A stretch of DNA of 64,000 nucleotides, taken from Zea mays (lineage: Eukaryota; Streptophyta; Magnoliopsida; Poales; Poaceae). Positions 11,683 through 51,691 of the stretch are shown one piece after another; the stretch's first letter is position 1; each line of letters opens with the position of its first letter. The stretch is taken from the NCBI RefSeq assembly GCF_902167145.1, contig NC_050098.1, positions 81,446,207 through 81,510,206 on the forward strand, given 5' to 3'. Below the pieces are notes generated by a model. It saw only the letters and a program-made list of their open reading frames with translations, ran no database searches and was not told where the DNA came from. Made by a program: the position numbers and the translations under genes.

Positions 11683-12922
11683 TCACTCCTCATGCTCCTC
11701 CTCTGCTGAGGTAGGGTCCCACTCCACTGTCCAACCCGGTAGCAAGATGGACGGCCAAGTCACTCCAGCAACCATATCCTCCAGAGAACCTGTAAAAAAT
11801 TATGCCACAAGCAAGGCTGAGTATACTAATACTCAGCTAGACTTACCCGGTGTGAGGAGTCTACTCCTCTACCTCTAGACATGCAGCTGTTTGGCTGAGG
11901 GGTTTGGTTTGCCAAAAGCACTAGCTGAGTCTAAAATCAAGTTTTAGCTTTTCAAGTTTTAGTGTGACTCTCTTAAGACTAAATGTGTACCTAGCTAATC
12001 ATAGATGGTATCAAACATTTAGCAATCAACATCTTTTGCCAAATCAACACATTTCCACTTGTTACTCAATGTAGCAGCATGGATCAAGCAGTCTCATTAG
12101 CTGCGAGAAGCAGACGATTCGAATCGAGTTTATATCCTTGCAAGGTAAACCTAAACACACGACGTGGCGAGGCACTCCGTCCCCACACATATCAACCGTC
12201 CCCATCGATTCCCCATCAACAGATCAGGGCTCACCACCTTGGCGTACAATGCCTCACTGACCCCGACTGCCGTCGTGCAGTGACCACACTTGTACCCACC
12301 ATAACCGGAATAGGAGACCACGTCTCAGGTTGCGTGAGGAATAAAGTCTGCTGCCAGGTTTACTCAGGTACTAGGCTTACCGATTTACCATATTTCTCGG
12401 CATGTGCTTAGTACGTTCAAACGCTTGACATACGGTACCACACCTTAATCCTTATTCAAATTTCCGTCTCGTAGACAATGCATCCCCGTGGACCATTGTC
12501 CACAGACCATCATCATTTCGATATACAAATGGATACAACCAATTCCTAACCTCGCGTGAGTGCTAGAAAAATAACTCGACTTCTACCGAGATCCCTAATC
12601 AGTAAAGCAGCTACTCGACCTAGCATACTAGTATCCATCTCAAAAAGAATCCTTAGTTCATGCAACTAGGGTTTCAGTCAGCTCCTACACTTAAGTGCAC
12701 AACACAAGCCTACAATCATTAAGTGCAGTAAAATAGCATATAAAATTGGTTATGCATAAAACTGGGCTTGCCTTCCAAAGCTGGGGCAGGCAGATCCTCG
12801 ATGGCAGGCTCTGGTGCTGGCTCCTGGGCTACCTCCTGAGCAACTCCTTGCTCCGGAACGAGGATGTACTCTCCGTAAGCGAGATTACAGTCTATCGAAT
12901 GCAATGAATAAGATATATGCAT
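11683..12922 (-). CDS. candidate two-exon ORF inside the B 3' LTR
   Basis: Exon 1 is 12922-12772 (151 nt), from ATG (M-H-I-S-Y-S-L-H-S) through D-C-N-L-A and a Pro/Glu/Gln-rich segment to E-D-L-P-A-P-A-L-E-G, ending at AAG|GCAAGC. Exon 2 is 11789-11683 (107 nt) after the acceptor TTTTTTACAG; it encodes G-V-T-W-P, then P-G-W-T-V-E-W-D and ends E-E-H-E-E and TGA. Phases match (donor phase 1), and the intron is 982 nt. The product would be 85 aa, acidic, without membrane segments or a known domain. The F LTR has the same exon layout with a conserved protein. Whether it is translated is unknown. Confidence 0.45.
11816..11837. repeat. perfect 9-bp inverted repeat upstream of the LTR exon 2 acceptor
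   Basis: GCTGAGTAT-ACTA-ATACTCAGC, a 9-bp stem and 4-nt loop. The same palindrome is unchanged at 29788-29809, 40579-40600 and 50584-50605. On the minus strand it lies about 25 nt upstream of the predicted 3' splice site, where a branch point would be expected. Confidence 0.8.
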
Positions 12923-14834: not shown

Positions 14835-14842
14835 CTTTTATA
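14835..14842 (-). promoter_or_regulatory. TATA box of the B 3' LTR
   Basis: TATAAAAG on the element sense strand within a GC-rich U3. The partner LTR has the same box at 53598-53605, and F has TATAAAG at the matching place. Confidence 0.6.
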
Positions 14843-15953: not shown

Positions 15954-16948
15954 TTACGTACCGATTCCTTTAGGTAGAAAGTCGGGGAAGCGAGAACATA
16001 GAAAATCCTCAGTCTCCCACGTAGCCTCTTCTTCTGAATGGTTGCTCCACTGAACCTTATACATTTGGATTGACCTTGCTCGAGTTGATCTTTCCTTTTG
16101 GTCCAATACCTTGACGGGGTGCTCTTGGTAAGACAAGTCTGGTTCTATCTCCAATTCTGGTTCAGGTAGCACTTCCGTGGGTAAGCAGACACACTTCCGT
16201 AGATGAGATACGTGGAACACATCATGAATTGCTGACATATGAGATGGCAACTTCAATTGGTATGCTACAGGTCCACAAGTCTCTTTGATCTCATAGGGCC
16301 CAATATTGCGAGGAGCTAACTTGCCCTTGATTCCAAACCTCTGAACACCTTTGGTGGGTGACACCTTAAGATATACATGGTCCCCCACTTCGAATTGTAG
16401 AGACTTCCTTCTTTTATCATGATAGCTCTTCTGTTTGGCCTGAGCAGCTTCCATGTTCTTCTTAATGACTCTGACTTTCTCCTCGACTTCAAGTACTAAG
16501 TTAGGTCCAAAAATTTCTCTTTCTCCGGCTTGTGACCAATTTAGCGGTGTTCTACACCTTCTCCCACACAAGGCCTCGAACGGTGCCATCTTTAGGCTGG
16601 ACTGGTAGTTGTTATTGTAAGAGAATTCAGCCAAGGAAAGGCACTTATCCCAATTCTTCCCATAGTGCAACACACATGCCCTCAACATGTCTTCCAAAAT
16701 CTGATTTACTCTTTCTATCTGACCATCTGTTTGAGGGTGGTATGCTGAGCTTCTTATCACATGGGTTCCAAGTGACTCTTGCAGCTGCTCCCAGAACGTG
16801 CTACGAACGGTGCTCCTCTGTCTGACACGATAGTCCTTGGTATTCCATGCAAACGCACTATTTGGTCAATATAGATTTCTGCATACTTTTCTGCCCTATG
16901 GGTGGTATGTACTGGCAAGAAATGAGCATTCTTAGTTAGCCTGTCCAC
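15954..16948 (-). pseudogene. pol: B pol: integrase core and chromodomain (frameshifted)
   Basis: The segment 16948-16757 carries the integrase start (M-D-R-L-T-K, R-L-H-G-I-P-R-T-I-V-S-D-R-G). The segment 16760-15954 (268 codons) continues with Y-H-P-Q-T-D-G, E-F-S-Y-N-N, R-C-R-T-P-L, then the chromodomain Y-Q-E-H-P-V-K-V-L-D ... W-S-N-H-S-E-E-E-A-T-W-E-T-E. The two parts are in different frames, with the shift near 16790-16810 compared with F. It is homologous to 34197-35200 in F. The chromodomain is the histone-mark-reading tail expected to direct such elements to heterochromatin. Confidence 0.88.
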
Positions 16949-27676: not shown

Positions 27677-29344
27677 TCAAGCTTGAGTTTTGAGGGCCCT
27701 ATATTGCATAGGACCAGTGACTCTCTCAATTAAGGACTTTGCCACCCAGATTTGTCTAGGTCTACTCTTATTTGGTGGACCTAGGAATGTAACCTTAATC
27801 TTTCCATTTGCAACCTTTCTTAGAACATAGTGAGCATTGAAAGCAAATGGTCTTGAGTGCTTAGGCAAGGGAGTTGGTAGTTTAGCTTTGCAGTTGTGGG
27901 CAAAATGACCTTCATTTCCACACTCAAAGCATTTGATAGGCTTGTGAGTCTGCTTTGGCTTGTATTGAGTGATAGCTTTCTTTTGCACAAAAGCATTGTA
28001 TCCAATACCACTCTTGTTATTTTTCATAACAGTGTTCATAAGCAGCTCATTTTGGAGGTATTGACCCTTGTTGAACTTTTGCACACTTGTTGCAAGATGT
28101 TCATTTTCACTTTTTAGTTTCTTGACCTCATTCTTAAGCCTTTGATTATCCACTGCCAACTCATTGTTGAAATCATTGTTCTCAATAGCAACTTTTCCTC
28201 TAGTAGTTGCATCAGTCAAGTAATTCTTCAATTTTTGGTTGTCTAAAGTCAGGACTTCAACTTTTTCAGTCAATTCAGCATGTAGACTAGTTTGCTCTTC
28301 TCGAATCAAATCATCACATGAGGTTGCTACATCAAGCTTAACAATAGGGTTAATAGCCTCATGTGTTTTGCAAGATAAAAGTTCATTTTCAACAAGAAGA
28401 TTGTCATGATCAAATTTAATTTGAGTATAGTCTTCCTTGATCTTTACTAGTCTATTTTGCAACTCCCTATTAGCTTCATTTAATTTGTCATATTTTTCCT
28501 TAGCATCTTTTAGGGAGTTTGTGAGCTCATTTACAGTTGATGACATAGTTTTATTTTCTTCTTTTATTTCATCACTAGCCTTTATAACTATGTCATACTT
28601 GGCATTTAAAGATTCATTTTCATTTTTCAACCTATCACATTTAGCTTTTGACTTTCTAATGATTTGAGTATATTCTTTAAGTAAGTCAGCTAACTCATCA
28701 TATGAAGGTGAAGCAAATTCTTCATCACTATCACTATCATCAGCAATATTAATATCATTTTGTACCTTTCGTTCACCCCTAGCCATGAGGCATAGGTGAG
28801 AAGTGGATGATGGCGATGGTGGTGGTGAAGAGAAGTCCCCGGCGATGGCCGCAACTTTTTCATCATTCTCTTCTTCACTTGAAGAAGACCCACTTGATGA
28901 TTCGATGTCGGTGAGCCAGTCGCCAACAATATATGCCTTTCCATTCTTCTTCTTGTGAAACCTCTTTTGCTTCCCATCCTTCCTCTTGAAGAATTTCTTT
29001 TCCTTCTTTTCATCATCGCTGTCATCTTCTTTCTTGCCCTTGAACTTATTCTTCTTGGGCTTGTTACATTGATGAGCAAGATGACCAAGCTCACCACAGT
29101 TGTAGCAGTCCATCTCAGAAATGGGCTTTCTTTTGTTGGAAAAAAACTTCTTCTTTCTTGAATCAAATTTGATGCCTTCTCTATTTAGCTTCTTCAACAT
29201 CTTGGTGGTCTTCCTTACCATCAAGGCAATGTTTGCATCAAGGTCATCATCACTTGAGGACTCTTCCTCAACTTGTATTTTTGCTTTTCCTTTTCTTTCA
29301 TGATTTGCTTTGAGAGCCAAATCCTTTCTTTTGGAAGATGATTC
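27677..29344 (-). CDS. gag: Sirevirus E gag, C-terminal part (split by element F)
   Basis: From the F insertion point down to TGA at 27677 the frame is open (about 555 codons). It shows a Ser/Asp/Glu-rich patch, the first zinc knuckle C-Y-N-C-G-E-L-G-H-L-A-H-Q-C, a Lys-rich stretch, a long coiled-coil-like region (about residues 210-430 from 29320) and a second knuckle C-F-E-C-G-N-E-G-H-F-A-H-N-C. Two knuckles and a coiled coil are usual for maize Sirevirus gag. The N-terminal half lies at 44738-45349. The reading frame would be continuous across the insertion site, so only F disrupts gag. Confidence 0.9.
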   Translation of the reverse strand, partial: ESSSKRKDLALKANHERKGKAKIQVEEESSSDDDLDANIALMVRKTTKMLKKLNREGIKFDSRKKKFFSNKRKPISEMDCYNCGELGHLAHQCNKPKKNKFKGKKEDDSDDEKKEKKFFKRKDGKQKRFHKKKNGKAYIVGDWLTDIESSSGSSSSEEENDEKVAAIAGDFSSPPPSPSSTSHLCLMARGERKVQNDINIADDSDSDEEFASPSYDELADLLKEYTQIIRKSKAKCDRLKNENESLNAKYDIVIKASDEIKEENKTMSSTVNELTNSLKDAKEKYDKLNEANRELQNRLVKIKEDYTQIKFDHDNLLVENELLSCKTHEAINPIVKLDVATSCDDLIREEQTSLHAELTEKVEVLTLDNQKLKNYLTDATTRGKVAIENNDFNNELAVDNQRLKNEVKKLKSENEHLATSVQKFNKGQYLQNELLMNTVMKNNKSGIGYNAFVQKKAITQYKPKQTHKPIKCFECGNEGHFAHNCKAKLPTPLPKHSRPFAFNAHYVLRKVANGKIKVTFLGPPNKSRPRQIWVAKSLIERVTGPMQYRALKTQA

Positions 29345-29655
29345 TGTGGCAGAACCGCCCGAATTATTCCAGCTTAAGTGCCTAAGTCACGCCTCAGGGG
29401 CCGTAACACACTTAAATCAGAATAACCCGTCAGTCCCTCAGATCTAGTCTGATGAAGCCACTTAACCAGGATCAAATCCCACAATCTCACTCGAAGGTGA
29501 GTCACAGAAGAAATACAATAAAACAGGAAACCTCAAATTAAGTACCGAGTTATTACATAAATCGGAGTTTTTGAGTAGCAAATAAAGTTCATAAATTAAA
29601 GTGCAGCGGATAATCGATATCGTCGGTAATGAGGAAATGGGCAAGGCCTAGCCCA

Positions 29656-30901
29656 CTACTCCTCATGCTCCTCTCCTGCCGGAGTAACATCCCACTCGAC
29701 CGTCCAACCTGGTGGCAGGGTGGTAGGCCAAGTCACACCATCAACCAATTCCTGCATGGTACCTGCAAAAATTGTGCCACAAGCAAGGCTGAGTATACTA
29801 ATACTCAGCTAGACTTAACCGGTGTGAGGAGTCTACTCCTCTACCTCTAGACTATGCAGCTGTTTGGCTGAGGGGTTTGGTTTGCCAAAAGCACTAGCTG
29901 TTTCTAAAATCAATTTTTAGCTTTTTAAGTTCTACCATCATTAACTTAGCTAGATTTGCTCCTTCTAAGCATACATGGTAACAAGCAATTAGCTCAATCA
30001 ACAAGTTATCTCATGTAATCCACATTTCACTTCTTACTCGATGCAGTACAAGGAATCAAGCAGTCTCATTAGCTGCGAGAAGCAGACGATTCGAATCGAG
30101 TTTTAAACCTTGCAAGGTAAACCTAAACACACGGCATGTCAGGGTACTCCGACCCCACACATGACAACCGTCCCCATCGATTCCCCGTTCGCGTCCAGGC
30201 CTCACCGCCTTGGCATACAATGCTCCACTGACCCCGGCTGCCACCGTGCAGTGACCGCACTTGTACCCACCATAGCTAGCATGGGAGACCCTGTCTCAGG
30301 TCACATGAGGGATAAAGTCCGCGCCCGGCTTCACTCAGGTACTAGGTTTACCGGTTACCATTTTTCCCGGCATGTGCTTAGTACGTTCAAAAGCTTGACT
30401 CAGGTATCCACACATTAATCCTTAATTCATTTTTCCTGTCTCCTGGACAAGGCATCCTCCCTGGATCCAAGTCCATAGACCAACATATATCCCATTATCA
30501 AGATGAATACAATCAATTCCTGACCTCGCGCGAGTGCTAGAAAAATCACTCGACTTCTACCGAGATCCTGATTAGCAAGCAGCTACTCGACCTAGCATAC
30601 TAGTATTCATCTCAAAAGGAATCCTAAGTTCATGCAACTAGAGGTTTCAAGCAACTCCTACACTTAAGTGCACATTACAGTCCTACAAGCATTGAGTGTA
30701 GTAAAGTAGCATATATTAACATGGTTATGCATAAAACCGGGGCTTGCCTTCAATTGCTGGGGCTGCGGGGAGATCCTCAATAGCAGCTTCTGAAGCCTGC
30801 TCCTGGTCCTCCTCTTGGACAGGTCCTTGCTCGGGGATGAGCACGTACTCTCCGTCGGCAAGATTACAATCTAATGAATGCAATGCGTAAGATATATGCA
30901 T
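29656..30901 (-). CDS. candidate two-exon ORF inside the F 3' LTR
   Basis: Exon 1 is 30901-30748 (154 nt): M-H-I-S-Y-A-L-H-S-L, then D-C-N-L-A-D-G-E-Y-V, an acidic Gln/Glu segment and I-E-D-L-P-A-A-P. It ends at GAAG|GCAAGC. Exon 2 is 29762-29656 (107 nt) after ATTTTTGCAG: M-Q-E-L-V-D-G-V-T-W-P, then P-P-G-W-T-V-E-W-D-V, ending G-E-E-H-E-E and TAG. Donor and acceptor phases agree. The 985-nt intron holds the conserved 22-bp palindrome just upstream of the acceptor. The predicted product is 86 aa, close to the 85 aa in B, with the same ends and stop position. No known domain is recognised. Confidence 0.45.
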
Positions 30902-33064
30902 GATATGATATGTGCTTTTAGAAATTACAACTTTAAAGGTGTATGATCTTTTGAGTTAAAACAAGTTAACTTTACTTATGTAAAACCTTTTAGTGGTATA
31001 CTTGGTAAATTGGGTTAGTCTTATTGGGATGAGGTTTATTCCTTCTTCTCTTTTCTTTTATTCTCTTTAATGTTTTGGAGTAGGTTTGAACTACAAGTTG
31101 CTTTTAGAAAATTCCAAAAATTCTGCAAAAATTACAGTGGCTTGTTACTGGTGTATGATTCTCTGTCACAAAATTTGGGGTTCAGAAAGTGATGGTTTTC
31201 TCTGGACAAAATTACCAAATTTTAGGGCAGAAGGGGTACTTTGAACTACAACTATTATTTAATAGTGGGTAATTCTCAAAAACTTATTTTTGCTGGCTTT
31301 TAGGTGTTATAACATGACTTGATACAAATTTCTAGTCATTAATACCCTTTAATTATTTTCCTATGGTTTTCTCAAGTTTCTAGCCAAATGGGTGCTTTCT
31401 ACTACCACTATATTTGAAAAACATCAAACAACAGAGTTCTTATTTTTCTTAGTTGGTATTTTGTGCAAGAGCAATTATTCTGAAGTTTGGCTTCTTTTTG
31501 CTTAAGGGAAGGGGTGGTTTGCATTATTTGAGCTAAATGGCCTTTCTCACAAATTACTAGCAAAAGGCATAGGTTCACCTCTTTTTCATGGGTTTGTATT
31601 TTTCTCTGGTGGTTTATCTCATCATGGACTTAGCAAATTTTTGGTTGCCCATTATCACATTATTTGGGGTTGCTCATGATTTAGTGGGAAAATGCCTTAT
31701 TATCATTCTGTATTTATTTTCCCTACTTAAAAAGTTAGGCTGGGGTGCTCTGTATTTTTGTAGTGGGGCTCTGGTGGTTATAAGTCCACTAGATTTTTAT
31801 TAATCATTTTGGTTATAGTTTTGTAACTCTAATAATTGATTTTCAGTCTATATGAGGCTAAACAAATCATCTTAATTTAAAACTGGTCCAAACTAAGGGT
31901 CTCTGTATTTTTCCTAGGTTCTCTGTTGCATAAGTAAACTAGGAAAAATATTATTAATCACTGTTCATTAATTTCTAAGGCCTTTCTGATTTTCTCTAAG
32001 TTTTGGACAAAATAGCTTTAAATGAAAAACTACATCATAATCTCTAATGCTGGGGCTCCTACTATTTTTAAACAGTGTCTAATTTAGGTATAAGCATCTG
32101 CAAATTTTCTTAAGCTCAGCACAAAAGAAAAACTAATTTTCCTTAATTAAACAAGGTTTAGGGGGTTTCTGTTTTTAATTTTAAACTCTAAAATTTAGAA
32201 CAGAAAGCATATGGTTCACTATTTTTAAATGATAGGTCATAATATTCCAGAGCTAGCAAAATTTGTTTGACAGCTTTTCATTAAGATTTCATCAAGTTAC
32301 GGATTTTCTAAGTTCTCTGGTCATTTTAAAAAGAATAGCAAAATTGATTAAATGGAAATCCACTTTGCACTGGGGTCCCTGGCGGTTTTCTAAGTTTTCC
32401 TCGCGAATCAGTCCTTAGGTTACTATTCACATGAGTCGCTGACATTACGGAAAACCCCTCGGGTTCTACAGAACCTAACCCGAGGTCCTTCTTCTACCTC
32501 AAACAGTAGCCGCAGCGAAGAAAAGGGCGGAGGGGCTTACCGGCGGCGAAACTGTTCCGGTGAAGTGGTCGAGGGTGAAGGGGAGGTCGCGGGGATCACA
32601 ACGGTGTGCGGAACGCCGTCGGAGATGGCCGGAGTTGGTCGGTCCACGCGCGCAGGCGGGGATGCTCGTCGGCGGCGAGGAGACCGGCCTGGTCACGGCG
32701 AGATAGTTCAATCAAATAGGTCAGGGAGGTCCACGGGATGCCAGAGAAGACATGAGCGACAGGAATCGGGCGGAGACTCACTGGATAGCTCGGTCCACGC
32801 GCGGCGGCGGAAGACCGAAGTCCGGTGAGGATGATCTCGGGCCTCCGGTGAAGTCCGGTCGGGTCCGAGGGCTTGGCAAGCTTCACGGGCTACTGGCGGA
32901 GCTAGCCGAAGCACTGGTTGGGCTGGAGGGTGGCTGGAGTGGGCTGGCCACGGCGGCCGAAGCTCTGGCGGCAATGGCGGGCGGAAATGAGCTCGCCGGA
33001 GCTAAGGAACGGTGGCTGGCCGGGGAGGGTGAGTGCGGGGCGAAGAGAGGTGCGCCCGGGGAGG

Positions 33065-33071
33065 CTTTATA
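33065..33071 (-). promoter_or_regulatory. TATA box of the F 3' LTR
   Basis: TATAAAG in element sense, embedded in CG-rich sequence. It is repeated at 43858-43864 in the 5' LTR and aligns with the box in B. Confidence 0.6.
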
Positions 33072-33946
33072 GGCGCGGGCGGGCACGGCCGAGGGCGTGG
33101 GCGCGCGGCGGACTTGACCGGACGCCAGGGCGAGCGCGCGCGCGGGTTGGGCGAGCTCTGGCGTGCCGACCAGGGTCGAACACGTGTGCCCGTGCGTTCT
33201 GCCCAAGTTCTGGCGCGTGTGGTCGCTCATCCGAGCCTGCTCTCGCCTTGGTCAGTGCACAAAACGTCTTCTCCTCCCTACAAGCTACCATTCTTGTGTG
33301 GGGGTCATAGGATTTTGCCTACTGGTTGCAGAGATATGGAGCCAGGAAATCTGGTCTGTCTCCCTGCCCAAACCCGAGGCAAATCCCAAGTTTTGTCGTG
33401 TCTAGGGCTCGCGTCCCAATGCCATCTTCTGGCACACGACAGAGGGGTTAGTTAGACACAATTTTGTCAATGGGGCCATTAGGATTCGAGTTAGGGATTA
33501 AGGTGAACATCCCTGATCTTTGGCTCAAGGTCTGAATTTCAGAATTCTGAAATTCAGAATTCCCAATGAGTCCCAACAAAAGAGGCTTGATTTGGGGTTT
33601 TATTTGGATTATTTTGGCTAAGCTTTCTCAATCTTTCTTGTTGCTTATCAAATATACTTTAACTTATATAATTGGCTCAACTCAAAATTTTAAACTTTTC
33701 ATTCCCTTTCTCTTATTTTCTTGAATTTTGTTCATGGGGCTCACTTAGGGTTTTTAATTAGGGTTGAAAAATTTTATCTTTCAAGAGACTCAATTGTTTT
33801 GATCATGACACTTTTAAGTATAAGCTTGGTGACTTCTTTATTACTTAAGTTATTTTGGTACTCATGCCTACTTTAGTTCACATAAAATAATGGTCCTTGG
33901 TTTGGCTTTTTTTAAGAGAAACCCTAGGTGACACTGGGGTGTCACA

Positions 33947-33964
33947 GCCTTCCCCCCTTAAAGG
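33947..33964 (-). promoter_or_regulatory. polypurine tract of element F
   Basis: Minus-strand CCTTTAAGGGGGGAAGGC directly precedes the LTR start TGTGACACC. The following 230 bp to 34197 show nothing further. Confidence 0.85.
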
Positions 33965-34196
33965 AATATCTTCCCGAGATTCGGGCCAGAGTCCTTCCGA
34001 GGTGAAGCGAAGGGTGAGACTGATAGGAAAAGGGTGGGGATTATTATTATTAGGGCAAAACTGCTCTTCGAATGTCATTCTCTTTGCAACTTCAGAAGGA
34101 AGTCCTTTTAAGTTTTACTTTATAGTCACTTCATTCTGAATTAAGATCATATTTTTGGAAATTAGATTCGAAAGGCAGGAGGAGGGGTTGGGGTGA

Positions 34197-37100
34197 TTAC
34201 ATACCAGCTTCCTTAGGTAGGCAATCGGGGAAGTTGGATCTTAAGAATTCCTCGGTTTCCCAAGTAGCTTCCTTCTCTGAGTGATTACTCCATTGGACCT
34301 TGAACATCTTGATTGACTTAGCCCGAGTTGATCTTTCCTTGCAATCCAGAATCTTGGAGGGGTACTCTTGGTACGAGAGATCTGGCTCTATCTCCAATTC
34401 TGGCTCTGCTATGATCTCAGTCGGCAACCGAACACACTTCTTCAGCTAAGATACATGGAATACACTGTGAATGGCAGACATCTTTGAAGGTAACTTCAAC
34501 TTGTATGTCACGGGTCCACATGCTTCTATGATCTCATAAGGTCCAATGTAACGAGGGGCTAGCTTGCCTTTGATCCCAAACCTCTGCACTCCCTTGGTGG
34601 GTGATACCTTGAGGTATACAAAACTTCCCACCTCGAACTGGAGAGGTTTCCTTCTTCTATCATGATAGCTCTTCTGCCTGGCCTGAGCAGCTTCTAGATT
34701 CTTCCTGATTAGCTTGACCTTCCTTTCGGCTTCAGTCACTAAGTCAGGTCCAAAAACTTCTCTTTCACCAGGCTGAGACCAATTGAGTGGTGTCCTGCAC
34801 CTTCTTCCATAGAGAGCTTCGAAAGGTGCCATCTTTAGGCTGGATTGATAACTATTGTTATAAGCAAACTCTGCCAAGGAGAGGTGCTTATCCCAGTTCT
34901 TGCCACAATCGATCGCACAAGCTCTCAGCATATCCTCCAGAATCTGGTTTACCCTTTCCGTCTGACCATCAGTCTGTGGGTGGTAAGCTGAACTCCTGAT
35001 TAGCTTGGTTCCCAAAGACTCTTGCAATTGTTCCCAAAATCTGGCAACAAATTGGGCTCCTCGGTCAGAAACGATGGTCCGAGGTAATCCATGCAAACAC
35101 ACGATTCGGTCAATATACAATTCTGCATACTTCTGAGCCTTATCAGTGGTGTGCACAGGAAGAAAATGTGCCACTTTCGTCAATCGGTCCACAATAACCC
35201 AAATTGAATCATGATGACGAGAGGTGTTGGGTAGACCCACAATGAAATCCATGCTGATGTCGTCCCACTTCCACGAAGGTACGGACAGTGGTTGCAAAGC
35301 TCCAGCGGACTTCAAGTGGCTTGCCTTTATCCTCTGACAGGTGTCACACTCTGATACATACTGGGCTATCTCCCTCTTCATTCTGGTCCACCAGTACAAA
35401 AGCTTCAAATCATGGTACATTTTGGTGCTTCCCGGATGCATAGAGAATTTGGAGAGATGAGCCTCATCCAAAATTTTCTTCTTGAGATCCTAGTCCTTAG
35501 GAATTACCAATCTGTTTTTGAACCATAACACACCTTTCTCATCCTGGCGGAAACAATTATACTTCTCAACCTTCTGATGGAGATTCTTCTTGATAATCTG
35601 CACTCCCTTGTCACTGAGCTGGGCCATGACAATCTGGTCTTGCAAAGCTGGCTCAACAGCAATTTGAGACAAAGAACCAGAAGGAATCACTTCAATTTGC
35701 ATATTGCTCAACTCATCACACAAGGTGTTAACACGAGAATCCATCAGAATACAGTTGCACTGCAACTTCCGACTCAAGGCATCTGCTACCACATTAGCTT
35801 TCCCTGGGTGATAATGTACCTCCAGGTCATAATCCTTGATCAGCTCTAGCCATCTTCTCTGCCTCATGTTGAGATCAGCCTGAGTAAAAATGTACTTAAG
35901 GCTCTTATGATCAGTGAAGATGTTGCAGTGAGTTCCCATTAGATAGTGCCTCCACATCTTCAATGCATGAACCACTGCTGCTAACTCAAGGTCATGAGTA
36001 GGATAATTTTGCTCATGAGGCCTGAGTGCTCTTGAGGCATAAGCAATGACTCGGTTGTCTTGCATCAAGACACAACCTAGCCCGGTGCCAGAGGCATCAC
36101 AATATACATCAAAAGGCTTGCTGCTGTCGGGTTGCGCCAATACTGGTGCTGTGGTCAGATGCTGCCTTAATGCATGGAAGGCATCTTCGCACTTCTGACT
36201 CCACACAAACTTGACTTCTTTCTTCAGCAACTCAGTAATAGGCTTCGCAATTCGAGAGAATCCCGGAATAAATCTTCGGTAATAACCAGCCAATCCCAGA
36301 AAACTCCGAATCTGGCGAACAGTCGTTGGTGGCCTCCAGTTCATCACTTCTTGCACTTTATCAGGATCAACAGCTATTCCATCCTGAGAGATAGTGTGAC
36401 CCAAGAATTTGATTTCCTTTAGCCAAAAATCACACTTGGATAACTTGGCATAAAGGTGGTGCTCTCGCAGACGTTGAAGCACTACATGCAAATGCCCGGC
36501 ATGTTCTTCTTCGTTCTTTGAGTACACCAGAATATCATCGATGAAAACCACCACGAACTTGTCCAATTCCGGCATGAAAACAGAATTCATCAGATACATG
36601 AAATATGCTGGTGCATTTGTCAGCCCGAATGACATCACCAAGAATTCATATGACCCATATCTGGTTGAGAATGCCGTCTTCGGAATATCACTTGCTCGTA
36701 TTTTGATCTGATGGTAGCCAGAGCGAAGGTCTATCTTGGAAAACACCTTGGCCCCGACCAACTGGTCAAAGAGAACATCAATACGAGGCAAAGGATACTT
36801 GTTCTTGATAGTTACCGCGTTAAGAGGGCGGTAATCTATACACAGCCTCAAGCTTTCATCCTTCTTCTTCACAAACAGTGCTGGACATCCCCAAGGCGAA
36901 GTGCTTGGGCGAATAAAACCCTTATCCAGCAACTCTTGCAACTGCTTCTTCAACTCTGCCAACTCAGCGGGTGGCATTTGGTAGGGCCTCTTGGAAATTG
37001 GGGCCGTTCCCGGTTGCAACTCGATGGCGAATTCAATATCCCGGTCCGGTGGCATTCCTGGCAATTCATCAGGAAAGACATCTGCATACTCACAGACCAC

Positions 37101-38627
37101 TGGGATCTTCTTCAGGGGTAACTTCGTCATAGAGAAAGCACATGACTGAGAAGAACCCTGACTAGGCAGAATTAAAGTGAAATTCCCGCAGAAGGGAGAA
37201 TTAACTTCCACGGTACGACTGGCTACATCAAGCACAACTTGGTGCAAGGTCATCCAATTTGCTCCTAGAATAATGTCCACATTTTCCAATCCCAATACAA
37301 GAAGAGTGGTTTTGATAATGTGGCTTCCCAGTTGAATAGGCACGCTTTGGTTTAATTGATTAGTTGCAATTTTACCCCCAGGTGTGACTATCATGAATGA
37401 CCCTTTTGAGTGAGAGAATGGCAGTTTGCAATTAGCACTGAACCTTTGGCTAATGAAACTATGAGATGCACCAGAATCAAACAGAATTAAAGCAGGTTGA
37501 TTATAAACTGAAAAGGTACCGGTCATGATAGGAGCTCCTTCTGGCACTTCCTCTAGAGCAGTGAAGTTGAGCTTCCCTTGCCTGACTTGCACCTTCTGCT
37601 TTCTTCCCTTGTCTTGATTTGGTGCTGGCATCTGCCTCTGCTGGTTCCTGGGACAATTCTTGGCATAGTGGCCCACGTTGCCACAAGTGAAACACTTGTT
37701 CCCATTGCCCTGGCGGAACTGCTGCTGCTGCGGAGGCTGATTGTTTCTTGGGGCGGGAGCTGGATAGCGGTTGGGTGCCGGCTGCTGCTGCTGCTGAGGT
37801 GGCCTGATCACCCATCTGCCTGCCTGCTGCTGAAAACCCCTGCTCTGGTTGTGAGAAACAATCTGGAACCTCTGAGCCTGAGCGGATGGTGCTGCCATTG
37901 GTGCCTTCCTCTTCTTTTCTGCCCGGTGAGCAACAATGCAATCCTCCTGAGAGATGGCCATGTTGACCAACTCATTAAAGCTATCAGCCCGGACAGTGTT
38001 GAGTCGTTCCCGCAGCTTGGTATTGAGACCCCTGCGGAAGCGATCCCTCTTCTTTTCATCAGAATCAGCATGATACCCTGCATACTGGCATAAATCGTTG
38101 AAGGCTTGCGCATACTGCAGTACCGTGCGGGTTCCTTGATTGAGGGCCAGGAATTCGTTCAACTTCCGATCAAGAATGCCAGCTGGAATGTGGTGTCCTC
38201 TGAAGGCAGTCTTGAATTCCTCCCAAGATACATCACGATCAGCGGGGAGCATAGCACGGAAGTGGTCCCACCAAGTCCGAGCAGGGCCGCGAAGCTGCTG
38301 TGCGGCGAAGCGAGCCTTGGCCTCATCAGGGCAGTCTCCCGTGAGGAGGGGAAACTTGGACTCAACGACGCGGAGCCACACGTCGGCGTCCAAAGGATCC
38401 TCTGCCTTGGTGAACAAGGGCGGCTGCGTGCTCAGAAACTCCTGGTATGTTGCCATAGCCGGAGGTCGCTGATGCTGGCCTCCACCATGATGCTGTTGGT
38501 GGGGCTGGCGCTGCAAGAGCTGTCGCAGAATTTCATTCTGCTAGGCCATCAGCTCCTGCACCGTGGGAGCTGGAGGAGGTGGTGGGGGAGCTTGCTCATT
38601 TTGCCCGCGACGCTGCCTCGCTGCCAT
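34197..38627 (-). pseudogene. pol: F gag-pol polyprotein, one frame with three TAG codons
   Basis: The ATG at 38627 is chosen because the next codons match the gag start of B (R-G-Q-N-E, then Q-E-L-M-A). A single frame of 1477 codons follows, stopped only by TAG at 38541-38543 (B has CAG), 35490-35492 and 34446-34448. Order: capsid ([12 protein letters not shown]), Gln/Pro-rich linker, knuckle [14 protein letters not shown], protease [10 protein letters not shown] with F-I-D-D, RNase H D-A-S-G-T, integrase H-L-S-K-F-S-M-H ... C-D-T-C-Q-R, D-R-G-A-Q-F, Y-H-P-Q-T-D-G, and chromodomain W-S-N-H-S-E-K-E-A-T-W-E. Gag and pol are fused without frameshift. The three stops make it non-autonomous unless read through. 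Confidence 0.92.
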
Positions 38628-38885
38628 CTGAAAACAGAGATTGTCGCCATTGTTATCCCAATTCACATTTCCGAACGACAAGATATCATCTCATATGGAA
38701 GGAAAATGCCATAATCATAATATTAGGTTCGAAATGAAGATAACATGGTGACAAAGATCCCACAGATATCAATAGTTTACAGGGTTACATTAATCAGGGG
38801 AAAGTACCCACAAGCCTAGTCCAAAATGTGATACTACTAAGCTCGCATAGGCTTCTATCCGCCTAAAAAATGTCAAAGCGACTGC

Positions 38886-39761
38886 TTAACCCTGAGCGGT
38901 GGAAGCGACACTGGATACGGGTGAAGGAGGCATCGCGGAGGTAGTCCCATTGGCACCAGGGGCTGGTCCTAGCTCCTCGGGAGCCTCTTCTCCCTCACTT
39001 CCTGCTTCATTGGCCTCCATCTCCAGGTGGTGCATGTCCAAGTGATCATTTGCTTCCTCGAGTTCCCTCTGCACGTCGTGAAGCTGGTTCTCCAAGACAT
39101 CAATAGTGTTATCTCGGATCTCCACTTGCTGCTCCAGGGTGGTAATACGCTGGTTCAGCCTCTCCACCTGCAGATCCTTCTCCACCAACTCTGTGGATAG
39201 GTCGACCACAAAATCTTCCCGACTATCGAGAGTGAGCTTGGCAGCTTGAGCGGTGTTAGCAAGAAGTGTCATAGCATCGCTCTGAAGGGCCTGAAGGCGG
39301 TACAGCGCACTCATGCACTGAACAGTGACCCTCCCAACCAAGTCAGGATACATTGCCCACACATCCTTCACATGGCTCACGCGGTTACACCACATGGGAT
39401 CATCCTTCTTCTCAGCAGGGAAGAGTCCCAAGGGGTGCATCACCATCTCCAGGGGATGGTAGCCACAGAAAGTCGTCAGGGTCTTCATGGCTGCTGCCTC
39501 AACGGTGTCATCCGTCCTGAGTCCAATCGTCTCAGAGTCAAGAGAACGCCAACCCGGTTGAAGGGGATGAGCCTCCAAAGTTAGCCAGACCCGACAACGA
39601 GGTACCCGATGCTCCTCATACAACTGCACTGTGTACAAAGGAGGCGTAGGGTAACCTGCGGAGTTAAGCACTTCCCACAAGATGGAAGGAAAACCATCGC
39701 GAGAGAGGAAGTCAGAACTGAAACGAGAGTCTCCTCCACTGGCGGGGGTGGGTGAATTCAT
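38886..39761 (-). CDS. F orf0: leader ORF between primer site and gag (291 codons, intact)
   Basis: An uninterrupted frame lies 360 nt after the primer site and 258 nt before gag. Residues 1-160 look globular: I-L-W-E-V-L, E-E-H-R-V-P-R-C-R-V, L-T-T-F-C-G-Y-H-P-L-E, L-F-P-A-E-K-K-D-D-P-M-W. Residues ~175-245 are heptad-rich and likely a coiled coil (V-E-K-D-L-Q-V-E-R-L, I-D-V-L-E-N-Q-L). The tail is acidic then Ser/Pro-rich. B has a clear homologue at the same place (48810-49694). Rice RIRE3 and RIRE8 are known to carry an 'orf0' of unknown function upstream of gag; I infer this is the same class. There is no catalytic motif. A dimerising or RNA-binding accessory role is only a guess. Confidence 0.85.
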   Translation of the reverse strand: MNSPTPASGGDSRFSSDFLSRDGFPSILWEVLNSAGYPTPPLYTVQLYEEHRVPRCRVWLTLEAHPLQPGWRSLDSETIGLRTDDTVEAAAMKTLTTFCGYHPLEMVMHPLGLFPAEKKDDPMWCNRVSHVKDVWAMYPDLVGRVTVQCMSALYRLQALQSDAMTLLANTAQAAKLTLDSREDFVVDLSTELVEKDLQVERLNQRITTLEQQVEIRDNTIDVLENQLHDVQRELEEANDHLDMHHLEMEANEAGSEGEEAPEELGPAPGANGTTSAMPPSPVSSVASTAQG

Positions 39762-40121
39762 CTGCGGAAGGGAATCAAGGATAAATATTATGGTGGAAGG
39801 AAAAAGAAAAAGAGAGCCGGATGGTTCGAAGAAAAGGGGTTAGCTCAAATTTTAATTCCTCCTTGTGTTTTATAATGCATGCATGCTGAAAGAAACGTTG
39901 CCTCTCAAAAGGAAATTAGGGTGCCTTTTTAGGGCATCCTAAAATATAAGTATTGGCCCACAGGGCCTAATTAGTTAGCCACCTATTTCTCCCTCTATGC
40001 CTAAGGCCTTTCGTCCTAGGACTAGTGGTCTAGTCCTGACGATCCGTAGTAGCTTCTAGGCAAGTTTTAGATTTTGAAAATTGGTATTCATGGTTTATTG
40101 CCCTTCTCTGTGGTGGAATTT
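39762..40121 (-). other. F untranslated leader between primer site and orf0
   Basis: 360 bp of AT-rich sequence (39780-40120) without conserved frame. It presumably carries packaging and dimerisation signals, none recognisable by eye. Confidence 0.5.
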
Positions 40122-40133
40122 GCTCCGATACCA
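40122..40133 (-). promoter_or_regulatory. primer binding site of F (initiator Met tRNA)
   Basis: Minus strand TGGTATCGGAGC, two bases after the LTR end. One mismatch from the canonical TGGTATCAGAGC. Confidence 0.85.
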
Positions 40134-40135
40134 GC

Positions 40136-43100
40136 TGTGGCAGAACCGCCCGAATTATTCCAGCTTAAGTGCCTAAGTCACGCCTCAGGGGCCGTAACAC
40201 ACTTGAATCGGAATAACCCGTCAGTCCCTCAGATCTAGTCTGATGAAGCCACTTAACCAGGATCAAATCCCACAATCTCACTCGAAGGTGAGTCACAGAA
40301 GAAATACAATAAAACAGGAAACCTCAAATTAAGTACCGAGTTATTACATAAATCGGAGTTTTTGAGTAGCGAATAAAGTTCATAAATTAAAGTGCAGCGG
40401 ATAATCGATATCGTCGGTAATGAGGAAATGGGCAAGGCCTAGCCCACTACTCCTCATGCTCCTCTCCTGCCGGAGTAACATCCCACTCGACCGTCCAACC
40501 CGGTGGCAGGGTGGTAGGCCAAGTCACACCATCAACCAATTCCTGCATGGTACCTGCAAAAATTGTGCCACAAGCAAGGCTGAGTATACTAATACTCAGC
40601 TATACTTAACCGGTGTGAGGAGTCTACTCCTCTACCTCTAGACTATGCAGCTGTTTGGCTGAGGGGTTTGGTTTGCCAAAAGCACTAGCTGTTTCTAAAA
40701 TCAATTTTTAGCTTTTTAAGTTCTACCATCATTAACTTAGCTAGATTTGCTCCTTCTAAGCATACATGGTAACAAGCAATTAGCTCAATCAACAAGTTAT
40801 CTCATGTAATCCACATTTCACTTCTTACTCGATGCAGTACAAGGAATCAAGCAGTCTCATTAGCTGCGAGAAGCAGACGATTCGAATCGAGTTTTAAACC
40901 TTGCAAGGTAAACCTAAACACACGGCATGTCAGGGTACTCCGACCCCACACATGACAACCGTCCCCATCGATTCCCCGTTCGCGTCCAGGCCTCACCGCC
41001 TTGGCATACAATGCTCCACTGACCCCGGCTGCCGCCGTGCAGTGACCGCACTTGTACCCACCATAGCTAGCATGGGAGACCCTGTCTCAGGTCGCATGAG
41101 GGATAAAGTCCGCGCCCGGCTTCACTCAGGTACTAGGTTTACCGGTTACCATTTTTCCCGGCATGTGCTTAGTACGTTCAAAAGCTTGACTCAGGTATCC
41201 ACACATTAATCCTTAATTCATTTTTCCCGTCTCCTGGACAAGGCATCCTCCCTGGATCCAAGTCCATAGACCAACATATATCCCATTATCAAGATGAATA
41301 CAATCAATTCCTGACCTCGCGCGAGTGCTAGAAAAAATCACTCGACTTCTACCGAGATCCTGATTAGCAAGCAGCTACTCGACCTAGCATACTAGTATTC
41401 ATCTCAAAAGGAATCCTAAGTTCATGCAACTAGAGGTTTCAAGCAACTCCTACACTTAAGTGCACATTACAGTCCTACAAGCATTAAGTGTAGTAAAGTA
41501 GCATATATTAACATGGTTATGCATAAAACCGGGGCTTGCCTTCAATTGCTGGGGCTGCGGGGAGATCCTCAATAGCAGCTTCTGAAGCCTGCTCCTGGTC
41601 CTCCTCTTGGACAGGTCCTTGCTCGGGGATGAGCACGTACTCTCCGTCGGCAAGATTACAATCTAATGAATGCAATGCGTAAGATATATGCATGATATGA
41701 TATGTGCTTTTAGAAATTACAACTTTAAAGGTGTATGATCTTTTGAGTTAAAACAAGTTAACTTTACTTATGTAAAACCTTTTAGTGGTATACTTGGTAA
41801 ATTGGGTTAGTCTTATTGGGATGAGGTTTATTCCTTCTTCTCTTTTCTTTTATTCTCTTTAATGTTTTGGAGTAGGTTTGAACTACAAGTTGCTTTTAGA
41901 AAATTCCACAAATTCTGCAAAAATTACAGTGGCTTGTTACTGGTGTATGATTCTCTGTCACAAAATTTGGGGTTCAGAAAGTCAATGGTTTTCTCTGGAC
42001 AAAATTACCAAATTTTAGGGCAGAAGGGGTACTTTGAACTACAACTATTATTTAATAGTGGGTAATTCTCAAAAACTTATTTTTGCTGGCTTTTAGGTGT
42101 TATAACATGACTTGATACAAATTTCTAGTCATTAATACCCTTTAATTATTTTCCTATGGTTTTCTCAAGTTTCTAGCCAAATGGGTGCTTTCTACTACCA
42201 CTATATTTGAAAAACATCAAACAACAGAGTTCTTATTTTTCTTAGTTGGTATTTTGTGCAAGAGCAATCATTCTGAAGTTTGGCTTCTTTTTGCTTAAGG
42301 GAAGGGGTGGTTTGCATTATTTGAGCTAAATGGCCTTTCTCACAAATTACTAGCAAAAGGCATAGGTTCACCTCTTTTTCATGGGTTTGTATTTTTCTCT
42401 GGTGGTTTATCTCATCATGGACTTAGCAAATTTTTCGTTGCCCATTATCACGTTATTTGGATTTGCTCATGATTTAGTGGGAAAATGCCTTATTATCATT
42501 CTGTATTTATTTTCCCTACTTAAAAAGTTAGGCTGGGGTGCTCTGTATTTTTGTAGTGGGGCTCTGGTGGTTATAAGTCCACTAGATTTTTATTAATCAT
42601 TTTGGTTATAGTTTTGTAACTCTAATAATTGATTTTCAGTCTATATGAGGCTAAACAAATCATCTTAATTTAAAACTGGTCCAAACTAAGGGTCTCTGTA
42701 TTTTTCCTAGGTTCTCTGTTGCATAAGTAAACTAGGAAAAATATTATTAATCACTGTTCATTAATTTCTAAGGCCTTTCTGATTTTCTCTAAGTTTTGGA
42801 CAAAATAGCTTTAAATGAAAAACTACATCATAATCTCTAATGCTGGGGCTCCTACTATTTTTAAACAGTGTCTAATTTAGGTATAAGCATCTGCAAATTT
42901 TCTTAAGCTCAGCACAAAAGAAAAACTAATTTTCCTTAATTAAACAAGGTTTAGGGGGTTTCTGTTTTTAATTTTAAACTCTAAAATTTAGAACAGAAAG
43001 CATATGGTTCACTATTTTTAAATGATAGGTCATAATATTCCAGAGCTAGCAAAATTTGTTTGACAGCTTTTCATTAAGATTTCATCAAGTTACGGATTTT

Positions 43101-44737
43101 CTAAGTTCTCTGGTCATTTTAAAAAGAATAGCAAAATTGATTAAATGGAAATCCACTTTGCACTGGGGTCCCTGGCGGTTTTCTAAGTTTTCCTCGCGAA
43201 TCAGTCCTTAGGTTACTATTCACATGAGTCGCTGACATTACGGAAAACCCCTCGGGTTCTACAGAACCTAACCCGAGGTCCTTCTTCTACCTCAAACAGT
43301 AGCCGCGGCGAAGAAAAGGGCGGAGGGGCATACCGGCGGCGAGACTGTTCCGGTGAAGTGGTCGAGGGTGAAGGGGAGGTCGCGGGGATCACAACGGTGT
43401 GCGGAACGCCGTCGGAGATGGCCGGAGTTGGTCGGTCCACGCGCGCAGGCGGGGATGCTCGTCGGCGGCGAGGAGACCGGCCTGGTCACGGCGAGATAGT
43501 TCAATCAAATAGGTCAGGGAGGTCCACGGGATGCCAGAGAAGACATGAGCGAAAGGAATCGGGCGGAGACTCACTGGATAGCTCGGTCCACGCGCGGCGG
43601 CGGAAGACCGAAGTCCGGTGAGGATGATCTCGGGCCTCCGGTGAAGTCCGGTCGGGTCCGAGGGCTTGGCAAGCTTCACGGGCTACTGGCGGAGCTAGGC
43701 GAAGCACTGGTTGGGCTGGAGGGTGGCTGGAGTGGGCTGGCCACGGCGGTCGAAGCTCTGGCGGCAATGGCGGGCGGAAATGAGCTCGCCGGAGCTAAGG
43801 AACGGTGGCTGGCCGGGGAGGGTGAGTGCGGGGCGAAGAGAGGTGCGCCCGGGGAGGCTTTATAGGCGCGGGCGGGCACGGCCGAGGGCGTGGGCGCGCG
43901 GCGGACTTGACCGGACGCCGGGGCGAGCGCGCGCGCGGGTTGGGCGAGCTCTGGCGTGCCGACCAGGGTCGAACACGTGTGCCCGTGCGTTCTGCCCAAG
44001 TTCTGGCGCGTGTGGTCGCTCATCCGAGCCTGCTCTCGCCTTGGTCAGTGCACAAAACCTCTTCTCCTCCCTACAAGCTACCATTCTTGTGTGGGGGTCA
44101 TAGGATTTTGCCTACTGGTTGCAGAGATATGGAGCCAGGAAATCTGGTCTGTCTCCCTGCCCAAACCCGAGGCAAATCCCAAGTTTTGTCGTGTCTAGGG
44201 CTCGCGTCCCAATGCCATCTTCTGGCACACGACAGAGGGGTTAGTTGGACACAATTTTGTCAATGGGGCCATTAGAATTCGAGTTAGGGATCAAGGTGAA
44301 CATCCCTGATCTTTGGCTCAAGGTCTGAATTTCAGAATTCTGAAATTCAGAATTCCCAATGAGTCCCAACAAAAGAGGCTTGATTTGGGGTTTTATTTGG
44401 ATTATTTTGGCTAAGCTTTCTCAATCTTTCTTGTTGCTTATCAAATATACTTTAACTTATATAATTGGCTCAACTCAAAATTTTAAACTTTTCATTCCCT
44501 TTTTCTTATTTTCTTGAATTTTGTTCATGGGGCTCACTTAGGGTTTTTAATTAGGGTTGAAAAATTTTATCTTTCAAGAGACTCAATTGTTTTGATCATG
44601 ACACTTTTAAGTATAAGCTTGGTGACTTCTTTATTACTTAAGTTATTTTGGTACTCATGCCTACTTTAGTTCACATAAAATAATGGTCCTTGGTTTGGCT
44701 TTTTTAAGAGAAACCCTAGGTGACACTGGGGTGTCAC
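40136..44737 (-). repeat. 5' LTR of element F
   Basis: It is nearly identical to 29345-33946 (about 30 differences by eye, mostly transitions). Its outer end reads ...ggggtgtcac followed by ttctttg. The last LTR base and the 5-bp duplication appear deleted. TATA box at 43858-43864. It contains the LTR two-exon ORF at 40447-41693. Confidence 0.95.
40447..41693 (-). CDS. candidate two-exon ORF inside the F 5' LTR
   Basis: It has the same structure as the 3' LTR copy: exon 1 41693-41540 (154 nt, GC donor), intron 986 nt, exon 2 40553-40447 (107 nt, TAG). Both exons stay open, with few substitutions between the copies. In the 5' LTR this frame lies in the RNA leader about 2.2 kb after the TATA box and upstream of orf0 and gag, so it would be the first conserved frame of the genomic transcript. 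Confidence 0.45.
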
Positions 44738-50450: not shown

Positions 50451-51691
50451 TCACTCCTCATGCTCCTCCTCTGCTAAGGTAGGGTCCCACTCGACTGTCC
50501 AACCTGGTGGCAAGATGGACGGCCAAGTCACTCCAACAACCATATCCTCCAGAGAACCTTTAAAAAATTATGCCACAAGCAAGGCTGAGTATACTAATAC
50601 TCAGCTAGACTTACCCGGTGTGAGGAGTCTACTCCTCTACCTCTAGACATGCAGCTGTTTGGCTGAGGGGTTTGGTTTGCCAAAAGCACTAGCTGAGTCT
50701 AAAATCAAGTTTTAGCTTTTCAAGTTTTAGTGTGACTCTCTTAAGACTAAATGTGTACCTAGCTAATCATACATGGTATCAAACATTTAGCAATCAACAT
50801 CTTTTGCCAAATCAACACATTTCCACTTGTTACTCAATGTAGCAGCATGGATCAAGCAGTCTCATTAGCTGTGAGAAGCAGACGATTCGAATCGAGTTTT
50901 TATCCTTGCAAGGTAAACCTAAACACACGATGTGGCGAGGCACTCCGTCCCCACACATATCAACCGTCCCCATCGATTCCCCGTAAACAGATCAGGGCTC
51001 ACCGCCTTGGCATACAATGCCTCACTGACCCCGACTACCGTCGTGCAGTGACCGCACTTGTACCCACCATAACCGGAATGGGAGACCATGTCTCAGGTCG
51101 TGTGAGGAGTAAAGTCTGCTGCTAGGTTCACTCAGGTACTAGGCTTACCGATTTACCATATTTCTCGGCATGTGCTTAGTACGTTCAAACGCTTGACACA
51201 CGCTACCACACCTTAATTCTTATTCCAATTTCCATCTCATAGACAACGCATCCCCATGGACCGTTGTCCACAGACCTTCGTCATTACGATATACAAATGG
51301 ATACAACCAATTCCTGACCTCACGCGAGTGCTTGAAACATCACTCGACTTCTACCGAGATCCCTAATCAGTAAAGCAGCTACTCGACCTAGCATACTAGT
51401 ATCCATCTCAAAAGGAATCTTGAGTTCATGCAACTAGGGTTTCAGTCAACTCCTACACTTAAGTGCACAACACAAGCCTACAATCATTAAGTGCAATAAA
51501 ATAGCATATAGAATTGGTTATGTATAAAATCGGGGCTTGCCTTCCAAAGCTAGGGCAGGCAGATCCTCGATGGCAGGCTCTGGTGTTGGCTCCTGGGCTA
51601 CCTCCTGAGCAACTCCTTGCTCCGGAACGAGGATGTACTCTCCGTCAGCGAGATTACAGTCTATAGAATGCAATGAATAAGATATGTGCAT
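50451..51691 (-). CDS. candidate two-exon ORF inside the B 5' LTR
   Basis: Exon 1 is 51691-51541 (151 nt), exon 2 is 50557-50451 (107 nt, TGA), intron 983 nt. Both exons remain open even though the two B LTRs differ by about 5%, with no frame-disrupting indel in either exon. The acceptor is TTTTTTAAAG here instead of TTTTTTACAG, still AG but weaker. The GC donor AAG|GCAAGC is unchanged. Confidence 0.42.

What the first reader, a model, noticed from the sequence alone, without database searches (positions are those of the whole stretch)
29656..30901. A conserved spliced reading frame hidden inside the long LTRs of elements B and F
All four LTRs of B and F (exons 11683-11789/12772-12922, 29656-29762/30748-30901, 40447-40553/41540-41693, 50451-50557/51541-51691) carry a sense frame of ATG...GAAG|GC(A)AG, an intron of 982-986 nt, an AG acceptor with a pyrimidine tract, and a second exon of exactly 107 nt with a stop at the same spot. 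The phases join in frame in every copy. B and F protein segments agree (M-H-I-S-Y, D-C-N-L-A, A-I-E-D-L-P-A, G-V-T-W-P, G-W-T-V-E-W-D, E-E-H-E-E), although the surrounding LTR has many indels. An 85-86 aa product encoded wholly within R-U5 is not a textbook LTR function. It could be a leader peptide, a regulator, a captured host exon pair, or an intron-controlled switch between genomic and subgenomic RNA.
Basis: partly seen in the sequence, partly recalled or inferred. Interest (0 to 1): 0.88.

Follow-up and report, generated by a model that had tools for sequence, protein, structure and literature searches.

The report
Pol tail exons inside maize LTRs
The long repeats at both ends of a very common maize jumping gene hide two small protein-coding exons that are probably spliced onto the end of the element's main enzyme, so a sequence thought to be purely regulatory also codes for protein and can also be spliced onto host genes.

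Summary
All four LTRs carry, on the minus strand, two short frames that join in phase across a 982-986 nt GC-AG intron. The joined frame is real coding sequence: dN/dS is about 0.2 between maize subfamilies, against pN/pS of 0.8-1.8 off frame, and maize database proteins use the same splice sites. The ATG is not conserved; the conserved exon starts 31 nt later, behind a 3' splice site (TAG|A). I found no usable conserved start codon in the LTR. Pol, however, ends in a phase-1 donor overlapping its own stop codon (G|GTAYGTA; GTAYGTA in 17 of 17 copies from three subfamily groups), right behind a chromodomain. Joined to the LTR acceptor it rebuilds the conserved D of DCNLADGEY. Best reading: the 3' LTR encodes a 75-76 residue acidic C-terminal tail of Pol, added by two splicing events. 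Pol-to-LTR splicing is inferred; no such transcript was seen, and two other phase-compatible sites inside pol are not excluded. The intron is unusually conserved between subfamilies and ends in a hairpin-rich, nearly invariant stretch.

The parts
30748..30870 (-). LTR exon B (first tail exon), F element, left = 3' LTR; 123 nt, phase 1 at both ends
   Evidence: acceptor TAG|A and phase match maize proteins P0121 and P0124
29763..30747 (-). Intron 2 (GC-AG, 985 nt), F 3' LTR
   Evidence: GC-AG junction spliced out in P0121, P0122, P0123 and P0124
29656..29762 (-). LTR exon C (second tail exon, ends in stop), F 3' LTR; 107 nt
   Evidence: acceptor also used alone in P0227
29763..29892 (-). Nearly invariant hairpin-rich 130 nt just before the exon C acceptor
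   Evidence: -40.1 kcal/mol, z -2.31
30871..34204 (-). Proposed intron from the pol-end donor to the 3' LTR exon B acceptor, F (3334 nt; removes the polypurine stretch before the LTR and U3)
   Evidence: inferred
34197..34205 (-). End of pol in F: G|GTATGTAA, phase-1 donor overlapping the stop codon
41540..41662 (-). Exon B copy in the F 5' LTR
40447..40553 (-). Exon C copy in the F 5' LTR
12772..12891 (-). Exon B, B element 3' LTR (120 nt)
11683..11789 (-). Exon C, B element 3' LTR
51541..51660 (-). Exon B copy, B element 5' LTR
50451..50557 (-). Exon C copy, B element 5' LTR
15954..15962 (-). End of pol in B: G|GTACGTAA, phase-1 donor overlapping the stop, 5 residues behind a Pfam chromodomain
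43329..43334 (-). Conserved upstream LTR donor (GTAAG in 14 of 15 LTRs; the F 5' LTR has GTATG); possible 5' leader donor
38886..39761 (-). ORF0 of F (291 aa); its ATG directly follows CAG, acceptor-like
38625..38627 (-). gag ATG of F, directly after TTTTCAG (acceptor-like)
29344..33945 (-). F element 3' LTR
40135..44737 (-). F element 5' LTR

Best explanation
The LTRs of this maize Ty3/gypsy chromodomain family carry two coding exons (B: 120-123 nt; C: 107 nt including the stop) that encode an acidic 75-76 residue C-terminal tail without lysine or arginine. In a transcript of the whole element, a donor overlapping pol's own stop codon (G|GTAYGTAA), just behind the chromodomain, is spliced to the TAG|A acceptor in the 3' LTR, and exon B is then spliced to exon C across a GC-AG intron. 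Unspliced RNA gives a Pol that ends behind the chromodomain and keeps the 3' end signals, U3 and the structured intron 2, so it can serve as genome; spliced RNA gives tailed Pol and cannot be replicated in full. The 5' LTR copies follow from LTR duplication. When an LTR lies downstream of another exon, the same acceptors trap it. Shown: purifying selection on the joined frame, conservation of the sites, and use of both LTR acceptors and of the GC-AG intron in database proteins. Inferred: that pol is the native upstream exon, and what the tail does (most likely binding a host or chromatin factor beside the chromodomain).
For: Coding: dN/dS 0.07-0.34 in 11 of 11 pairs. In exon B third codon positions diverge 0.44-0.52 between subfamily F and the three others, against 0.14-0.19 at positions 1 and 2; in exon C 0.32-0.35 against 0.23-0.26 and 0.13-0.16. 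Exon B is the top window of two scans. Splice sites over 56 rows: acceptor 1 TAG 55, donor 2 GCAAG 55, acceptor 2 AG 55. Splicing: P0121 and P0124 join two different N-termini to exon B exactly at TAG|A and cross the GC-AG junction; P0122 (jgi contig, 1685 bp) and P0123 also cross it; P0227 joins another N-terminus directly to exon C. In the genome the P0121 and P0124 upstream exons end in phase 1 at TCCA|GTAAGT and CAAG|GTAATC. Pol link: no usable conserved ATG in the LTR; the in-phase frame of the conserved upstream donor is closed without ATG in 15 of 15 LTRs; GTAYGTA at the pol stop in 17 of 17 copies, G before it in 16; G joined to AC or AT gives the D that is invariant in the tails; the chromodomain of B (29.0 bits, cut-off 25.1) ends at residue 296 of 303.
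Against: No transcript or protein joining pol to the LTR tail was seen; the two proteins that reveal acceptor 1 use other exons. The pol-end donor is not the only candidate: two more donor-like sites shared by F and B are phase 1 with G before them, 34966 (GTCAGA) and 34567 (GCAAGC, the same nine bases as the LTR donor in F), both within protein-conserved integrase motifs. The donor in B is weak by a recalled matrix (1.4, against 4.7 in F). The 17 copies fall into three groups (7 F-like, 8 of subfamily 3, 2 B-like), and 7 of the 18 bases before the site and 4 of 15 after it are invariant too. In intron 2, 37% of positions keep their dinucleotide in at least 55 of 56 rows, so the conservation of donor 2 and acceptor 2 alone is not exceptional. 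The dN/dS pairs are not independent; copies were chosen by similarity to exon B or by a motif in exon C; 8 of 60 loci were dropped, and L001 is the window's own B 5' LTR.
Confidence: 0.66

Rival explanations
1. Self-contained LTR gene: a leader peptide or regulator of 85-86 aa starting at the ATG in the LTR.
For: The ATG is in frame in the four window LTRs and in many F- and B-type copies.
Against: The ATG is ATA in one subfamily; another has indels and stops between any ATG and the conserved frame. Conservation starts at the acceptor. P0121 and P0124 skip the ATG.
Confidence: 0.07
2. The native upstream exon is another part of the element: a donor inside pol (for example 34966 or 34567 in F), in ORF0 or gag, or a short subfamily-specific exon in the LTR or leader. 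The tail would then end a shorter Pol form or a separate accessory protein, in the manner of retroviral second exons.
For: Sites 34966 and 34567 are phase 1 with G before them and are shared by F and B. A conserved donor lies upstream in the LTR, and ORF0 and gag ATGs sit behind acceptor-like AGs, so the element probably splices elsewhere too.
Against: Both pol sites lie in protein-conserved motifs (QTDGQTE, GIKGKL), which explains their conservation, and their use would remove part of the integrase and the chromodomain. The upstream LTR donor's in-phase frame is closed without ATG in 15 of 15 LTRs. No in-phase shared donor was found in ORF0 or gag.
Confidence: 0.22
3. Gene-trap by-product only: the LTR acceptors merely exonize into host transcripts, and the frame has no role for the element.
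For: Three maize proteins with three different N-termini use these exons; the N-terminus of the third was not traced.
Against: Fusions at single loci cannot keep dN/dS near 0.2 across subfamilies.
Confidence: 0.05

Closest known systems
Retrosat2 family (rice; maize ZMsat2, sorghum Sorsat2), PMC3485330
   Same: Ty3/gypsy with LTRs over 3 kb and an ORF0 before gag-pol, as in F.
   Different: In the parts read (abstract, two results sections) ORF0 is the only extra frame treated; no coding exon in the LTR is mentioned there.
Ogre elements (splicing between gag-prot and the rest of pol), passage in PMC6317226
   Same: Splicing of a plant Ty3/gypsy RNA controls polyprotein expression.
   Different: The Ogre intron is internal; here the proposed exons lie in the LTR and alter Pol's C-terminus.
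BARE of barley, abstract of PMC3735527
   Same: Separate RNA pools for translation and replication, with a spliced subgenomic RNA.
   Different: Its spliced RNA encodes Gag alone; the abstract mentions no coding exon in the LTR. BARE being Ty1/copia is recalled.
LTR-encoded retroviral proteins such as MMTV Sag (recalled, not read)
   Same: Protein coded inside a 3' LTR and reached by splicing.
   Different: Sag is a separate protein with its own start; here the LTR would code the C-terminus of Pol.
Maize Flip (passages in PMC2774510 and PMC3091746)
   Same: Mean full length 14,847 bp against 15,394 bp for F; 704 ESTs reported.
   Different: The name is suggested by length only; no Flip sequence was compared.

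Membership tests
Ty3/gypsy chromovirus, Tekay/Del-like | gag-protease-RT-RNaseH-integrase order with retropepsin and RT domains | tested here: met
   Pfam domains in window 34446-38540, minus strand
Ty3/gypsy chromovirus, Tekay/Del-like | Chromodomain at the pol C-terminus | tested here: met
   PF00385 at 29.0 bits (cut-off 25.1), residues 252-296 of the 303-aa frame at 15957-16865 in B; F has a similar stretch, not scanned
Ty3/gypsy chromovirus, Tekay/Del-like | Placement in the Tekay clade by an RT tree | not tested
   No reference RT sequences were aligned
Retrosat2-like elements | LTR over 3 kb and ORF0 upstream of gag-pol | tested here: met
   LTR 4.3-4.6 kb; ORF0 of 291 aa in F and a homologue with stops in B
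Maize Flip family | Sequence identity to the Flip exemplar | not testable with these tools
   Only the published mean length was compared
Retroviral LTR-encoded accessory gene (Sag-like) | Own start codon for the LTR protein | tested here: not met
   No conserved in-phase ATG

The most novel reading that the evidence does not exclude
The element uses splicing as a genome/mRNA switch built into its LTR. Pol exists with and without an acidic LTR-encoded tail, and the splicing that adds the tail also removes the 3' end signals, U3 and a structured intron 2 that acts as the packaging or nuclear-export signal, so only untailed, unspliced RNA can be replicated. More than ten thousand genomic matches to the last exon thereby carry ready-made terminal exons that host genes repeatedly acquire.
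Probability: 0.25. Interest if true: 0.88.

Novelty: new variant of a known kind. Interest (0 to 1): 0.74.

Why it matters
If true, part of the polyprotein of an abundant maize retrotransposon has been missed because it sits in the LTR, which is treated as non-coding. It would help explain very long LTRs in this group, make the split between genomic and messenger RNA testable in a plant chromovirus, give a candidate host-factor domain next to the chromodomain, and show how thousands of LTRs (14,468 motif matches with up to 2 mismatches in this genome, against 90 for the reversed control) can supply exons to host genes.

Tried and rejected
Rejected: the ATG start; a start behind the conserved upstream LTR donor (15 of 15 LTRs have an in-phase stop 10-50 codons upstream and no ATG between); ATGs conserved in one subfamily (none in phase). 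The codon scan is over-dispersed: GC-rich non-coding windows reach z 6.8 and intron 2 windows 6.5 without stops, against 8.8 for exon B, so I rely on dN/dS, stops and indels. Pfam found no family above its cut-off in the products. Rfam found nothing in 40000-44800 at E up to 0.1. The viral-contig scan gave no relative. Eight literature searches listed no title or abstract start describing coding exons in these LTRs; the library holds open-licence papers only, and I read parts of eight papers.

Not achieved: the LTR downstream of the P0121 and P0124 exons was not located (no LTR match within the 5.0 kb and 3.5 kb fetched); a genome search for intron-less exon B-C copies did not complete.

Two further phase-compatible sites in pol were found, so confidence in the pol-end model went from 0.70 to 0.66 and in the 'other part of the element' rival from 0.18 to 0.22.

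Full report
Place and anatomy. The window lies in a 2.18-Gb genome of maize type (G000:C3:81446207-81510206); exons of two database proteins labelled Zea mays are found in it at 94% and 100% identity. Two nested Ty3/gypsy elements on the minus strand have long LTRs: F (29344-33945 and 40135-44737, 99.3% identical) and B (11367-15695 and 50135-54457, 94.9%). F's internal region has gag, protease, RT, RNase H and integrase domains and, before gag, a 291-aa ORF0. B's pol ends with a Pfam chromodomain.

Checking the observation. In 4 of 4 LTRs the frame joins across a GC-AG intron as described.

Family sample. Of 60 genome loci 52 held the whole region and 8 were dropped; with the 4 window copies this makes 56 rows. 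L001 is the window's own B 5' LTR, so 55 rows are distinct places. L001-L030 were chosen by a protein match to exon B (24 kept) and L031-L060 by a 21-nt motif in exon C (28 kept), which inflates intactness of the exon used for choosing. 48 of 56 rows have an intact frame from the conserved D to the stop. The motif has 14,468 matches in the genome with up to 2 mismatches, against 90 for the reversed control.

Coding signal. In the scan of the whole LTR, six frames, exon B ranks first (z 6.7, no stops); exon C reaches 3.9 without stops, as do some non-coding windows. In a second set exon B reaches 8.8, but GC-rich non-coding windows 6.8 and intron 2 windows 6.5, so z is only a rank. Firmer are dN/dS (0.07-0.34 in 11 of 11 pairs; in three pairs pN/pS 0.77-1.81 off frame and 0.67-1.30 in the intron), codon positions and indels: exon B lengths are 119 (1), 120 (41) and 123 (14), exon C 107 (55) and 109 (1), while equal-sized intron windows average 24-26 rows of 56 with frame-breaking changes, with minima of 6 and 1.

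The 5' end of the model. Upstream of DCNLADGEY the subfamilies differ by single-base indels and stops, and one has ATA in place of the ATG. Divergence between F and the others falls from 46% to 17% between the 60-nt windows at F-LTR 3001 and 3061; exon B starts at 3076. The triplet before it is TAG in 55 of 56 rows. This reads as a 3' splice site with phase 1, the phase of the GC-AG intron too.

Independent splicing evidence. A profile search found 1726 proteins at E up to 1, of which 120 are listed. P0121 (LOC100278178) and P0124 (LOC100275057) carry different N-termini joined exactly at this acceptor and continue across the GC-AG junction; P0124 and its shorter form P0123 (B6SMY3_MAIZE) stop 10 residues into exon C; P0122, from a 1685-bp jgi contig, also crosses it. 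P0227 (A0A804NM22_MAIZE) joins another N-terminus directly to exon C. The upstream exons of P0121 and P0124 lie at C2:160212748-160212900 and C10:73792006-73792230 and end at GT donors in phase 1; the P0121 N-terminus did not match the LTR copies in hand. Whether these records rest on cDNA or on gene prediction was not checked. The other exon B hits that I read (27 of 27, 8 of 12) run on into intron 2, as expected of genomic DNA; most listed hits were not read.

Where the frame starts. Upstream of exon B only one ATG is shared by 7 or more of ten LTRs (F-LTR position 62), and none conserved in one subfamily opens a frame in phase. The one conserved upstream donor (GTAAG in 14 of 15 LTRs, GTATG in the other) has an in-phase stop 10-50 codons upstream and no ATG between in 15 of 15; in 13 it is a TGA at the same codon. 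Pol, however, ends G|GTATGTAA in F and G|GTACGTAA in B, the stop overlapping the donor. In 17 copies (2 window elements, 3 loci in hand, 12 fetched for this test; 7 F-like, 8 of subfamily 3, 2 B-like) GTAYGTA is intact in 17 and the preceding G in 16. Some neighbouring bases are invariant too (7 of 18 before, 4 of 15 after). The site is phase 1; with AC or AT from exon B it makes D, invariant in the tails. Among GTRAGT/GTAYGT sites it is the only phase-1 site with G before it that F and B share. A looser screen finds two more such sites, 34966 (GTCAGA) and 34567 (GCAAGC); both lie in protein-conserved integrase motifs, whereas the pol end lies at a stop codon where protein constraint does not readily explain GTAYGTA. 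I therefore propose that exons B and C encode a C-terminal tail of Pol read from the 3' LTR. This joins shown sites by inference; no such RNA was seen.

The tail. In the two products computed it has 75-76 residues, pI 4.05, 19-20 acidic and no basic residues. DCNLADGEY and LPPGWTVEWD are invariant in the six rows aligned (one row with a typed residue at a stop). Its function is unknown; a host- or chromatin-binding role beside the chromodomain is a guess.

The intron. Between F and B subfamilies intron 2 diverges 16%, less than exon B (25%), exon C (24%) or the stretch after the stop (28%); within subfamily B it diverges more than exon B (7.5% against 4.2%), a set chosen partly by exon B, and within subfamily 3 about equally. 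Its last 130 nt are nearly invariant and fold at -40.1 kcal/mol (z -2.31, 6 of 200 shuffles as good). With so little variation I did not test covariation. A role in splicing control or packaging is a hypothesis; exchange between subfamilies could also keep the intron alike.

Other splice-like sites. ORF0 begins directly after an acceptor-like AG in F, B and 4 of 12 fetched loci, found by a pattern that itself required AG; L067, with a primer-site-like stretch and about 550 nt beyond it, gave no match, and others were too short or lacked that stretch in place. gag begins after CAG in F and B. So ORF0, gag-pol and the tail may all sit behind 3' splice sites.

Literature. Seen: passages of PMC6317226, PMC2774510, PMC3091746, PMC5838962 and PMC2832683; a term search of PMC7264820 without hits; abstract and two sections of PMC3485330; abstract of PMC3735527. 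None of these parts describes coding exons in the LTR. MMTV Sag is recalled only.

Noticed in passing
29763-29892 and the other three LTRs: About 130 nt before the exon C acceptor are nearly invariant across 56 rows and hold two strong hairpins.
   Followed up: partly
39761 and 38627 (F); 49694 and 48496 (B), minus strand: ORF0 and gag start codons each follow an acceptor-like AG directly, suggesting that both are reached by splicing.
   Followed up: partly
32540, 43333, 14310, 53074: A conserved donor (CCG|GTAAG; GTATG in the F 5' LTR) in the GC-rich upstream part of the LTR, with a TGA at the same in-phase codon upstream in 13 of 15 LTRs.
   Followed up: partly
L073:1-210 and L086:1-60: Exons matching maize LOC100278178 and LOC100275057 end in phase-1 GT donors at the point where their proteins switch to LTR-encoded residues.
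   Followed up: yes
window 29344-44737 and 11367-54457: B and F LTRs are about 80% alike from exon B onward but only patchily alike upstream (two blocks of 66-69% and a short one).
   Followed up: no
34567, minus strand: The integrase motif GIKGKL in F holds the same nine bases, AAGGCAAGC, as the GC donor of the LTR intron.
   Followed up: partly
P0240: A 94-aa protein from a 588-bp ena contig fuses an unrelated N-terminus to exon C residues without using the acceptor; possibly a chimeric assembly.
   Followed up: no
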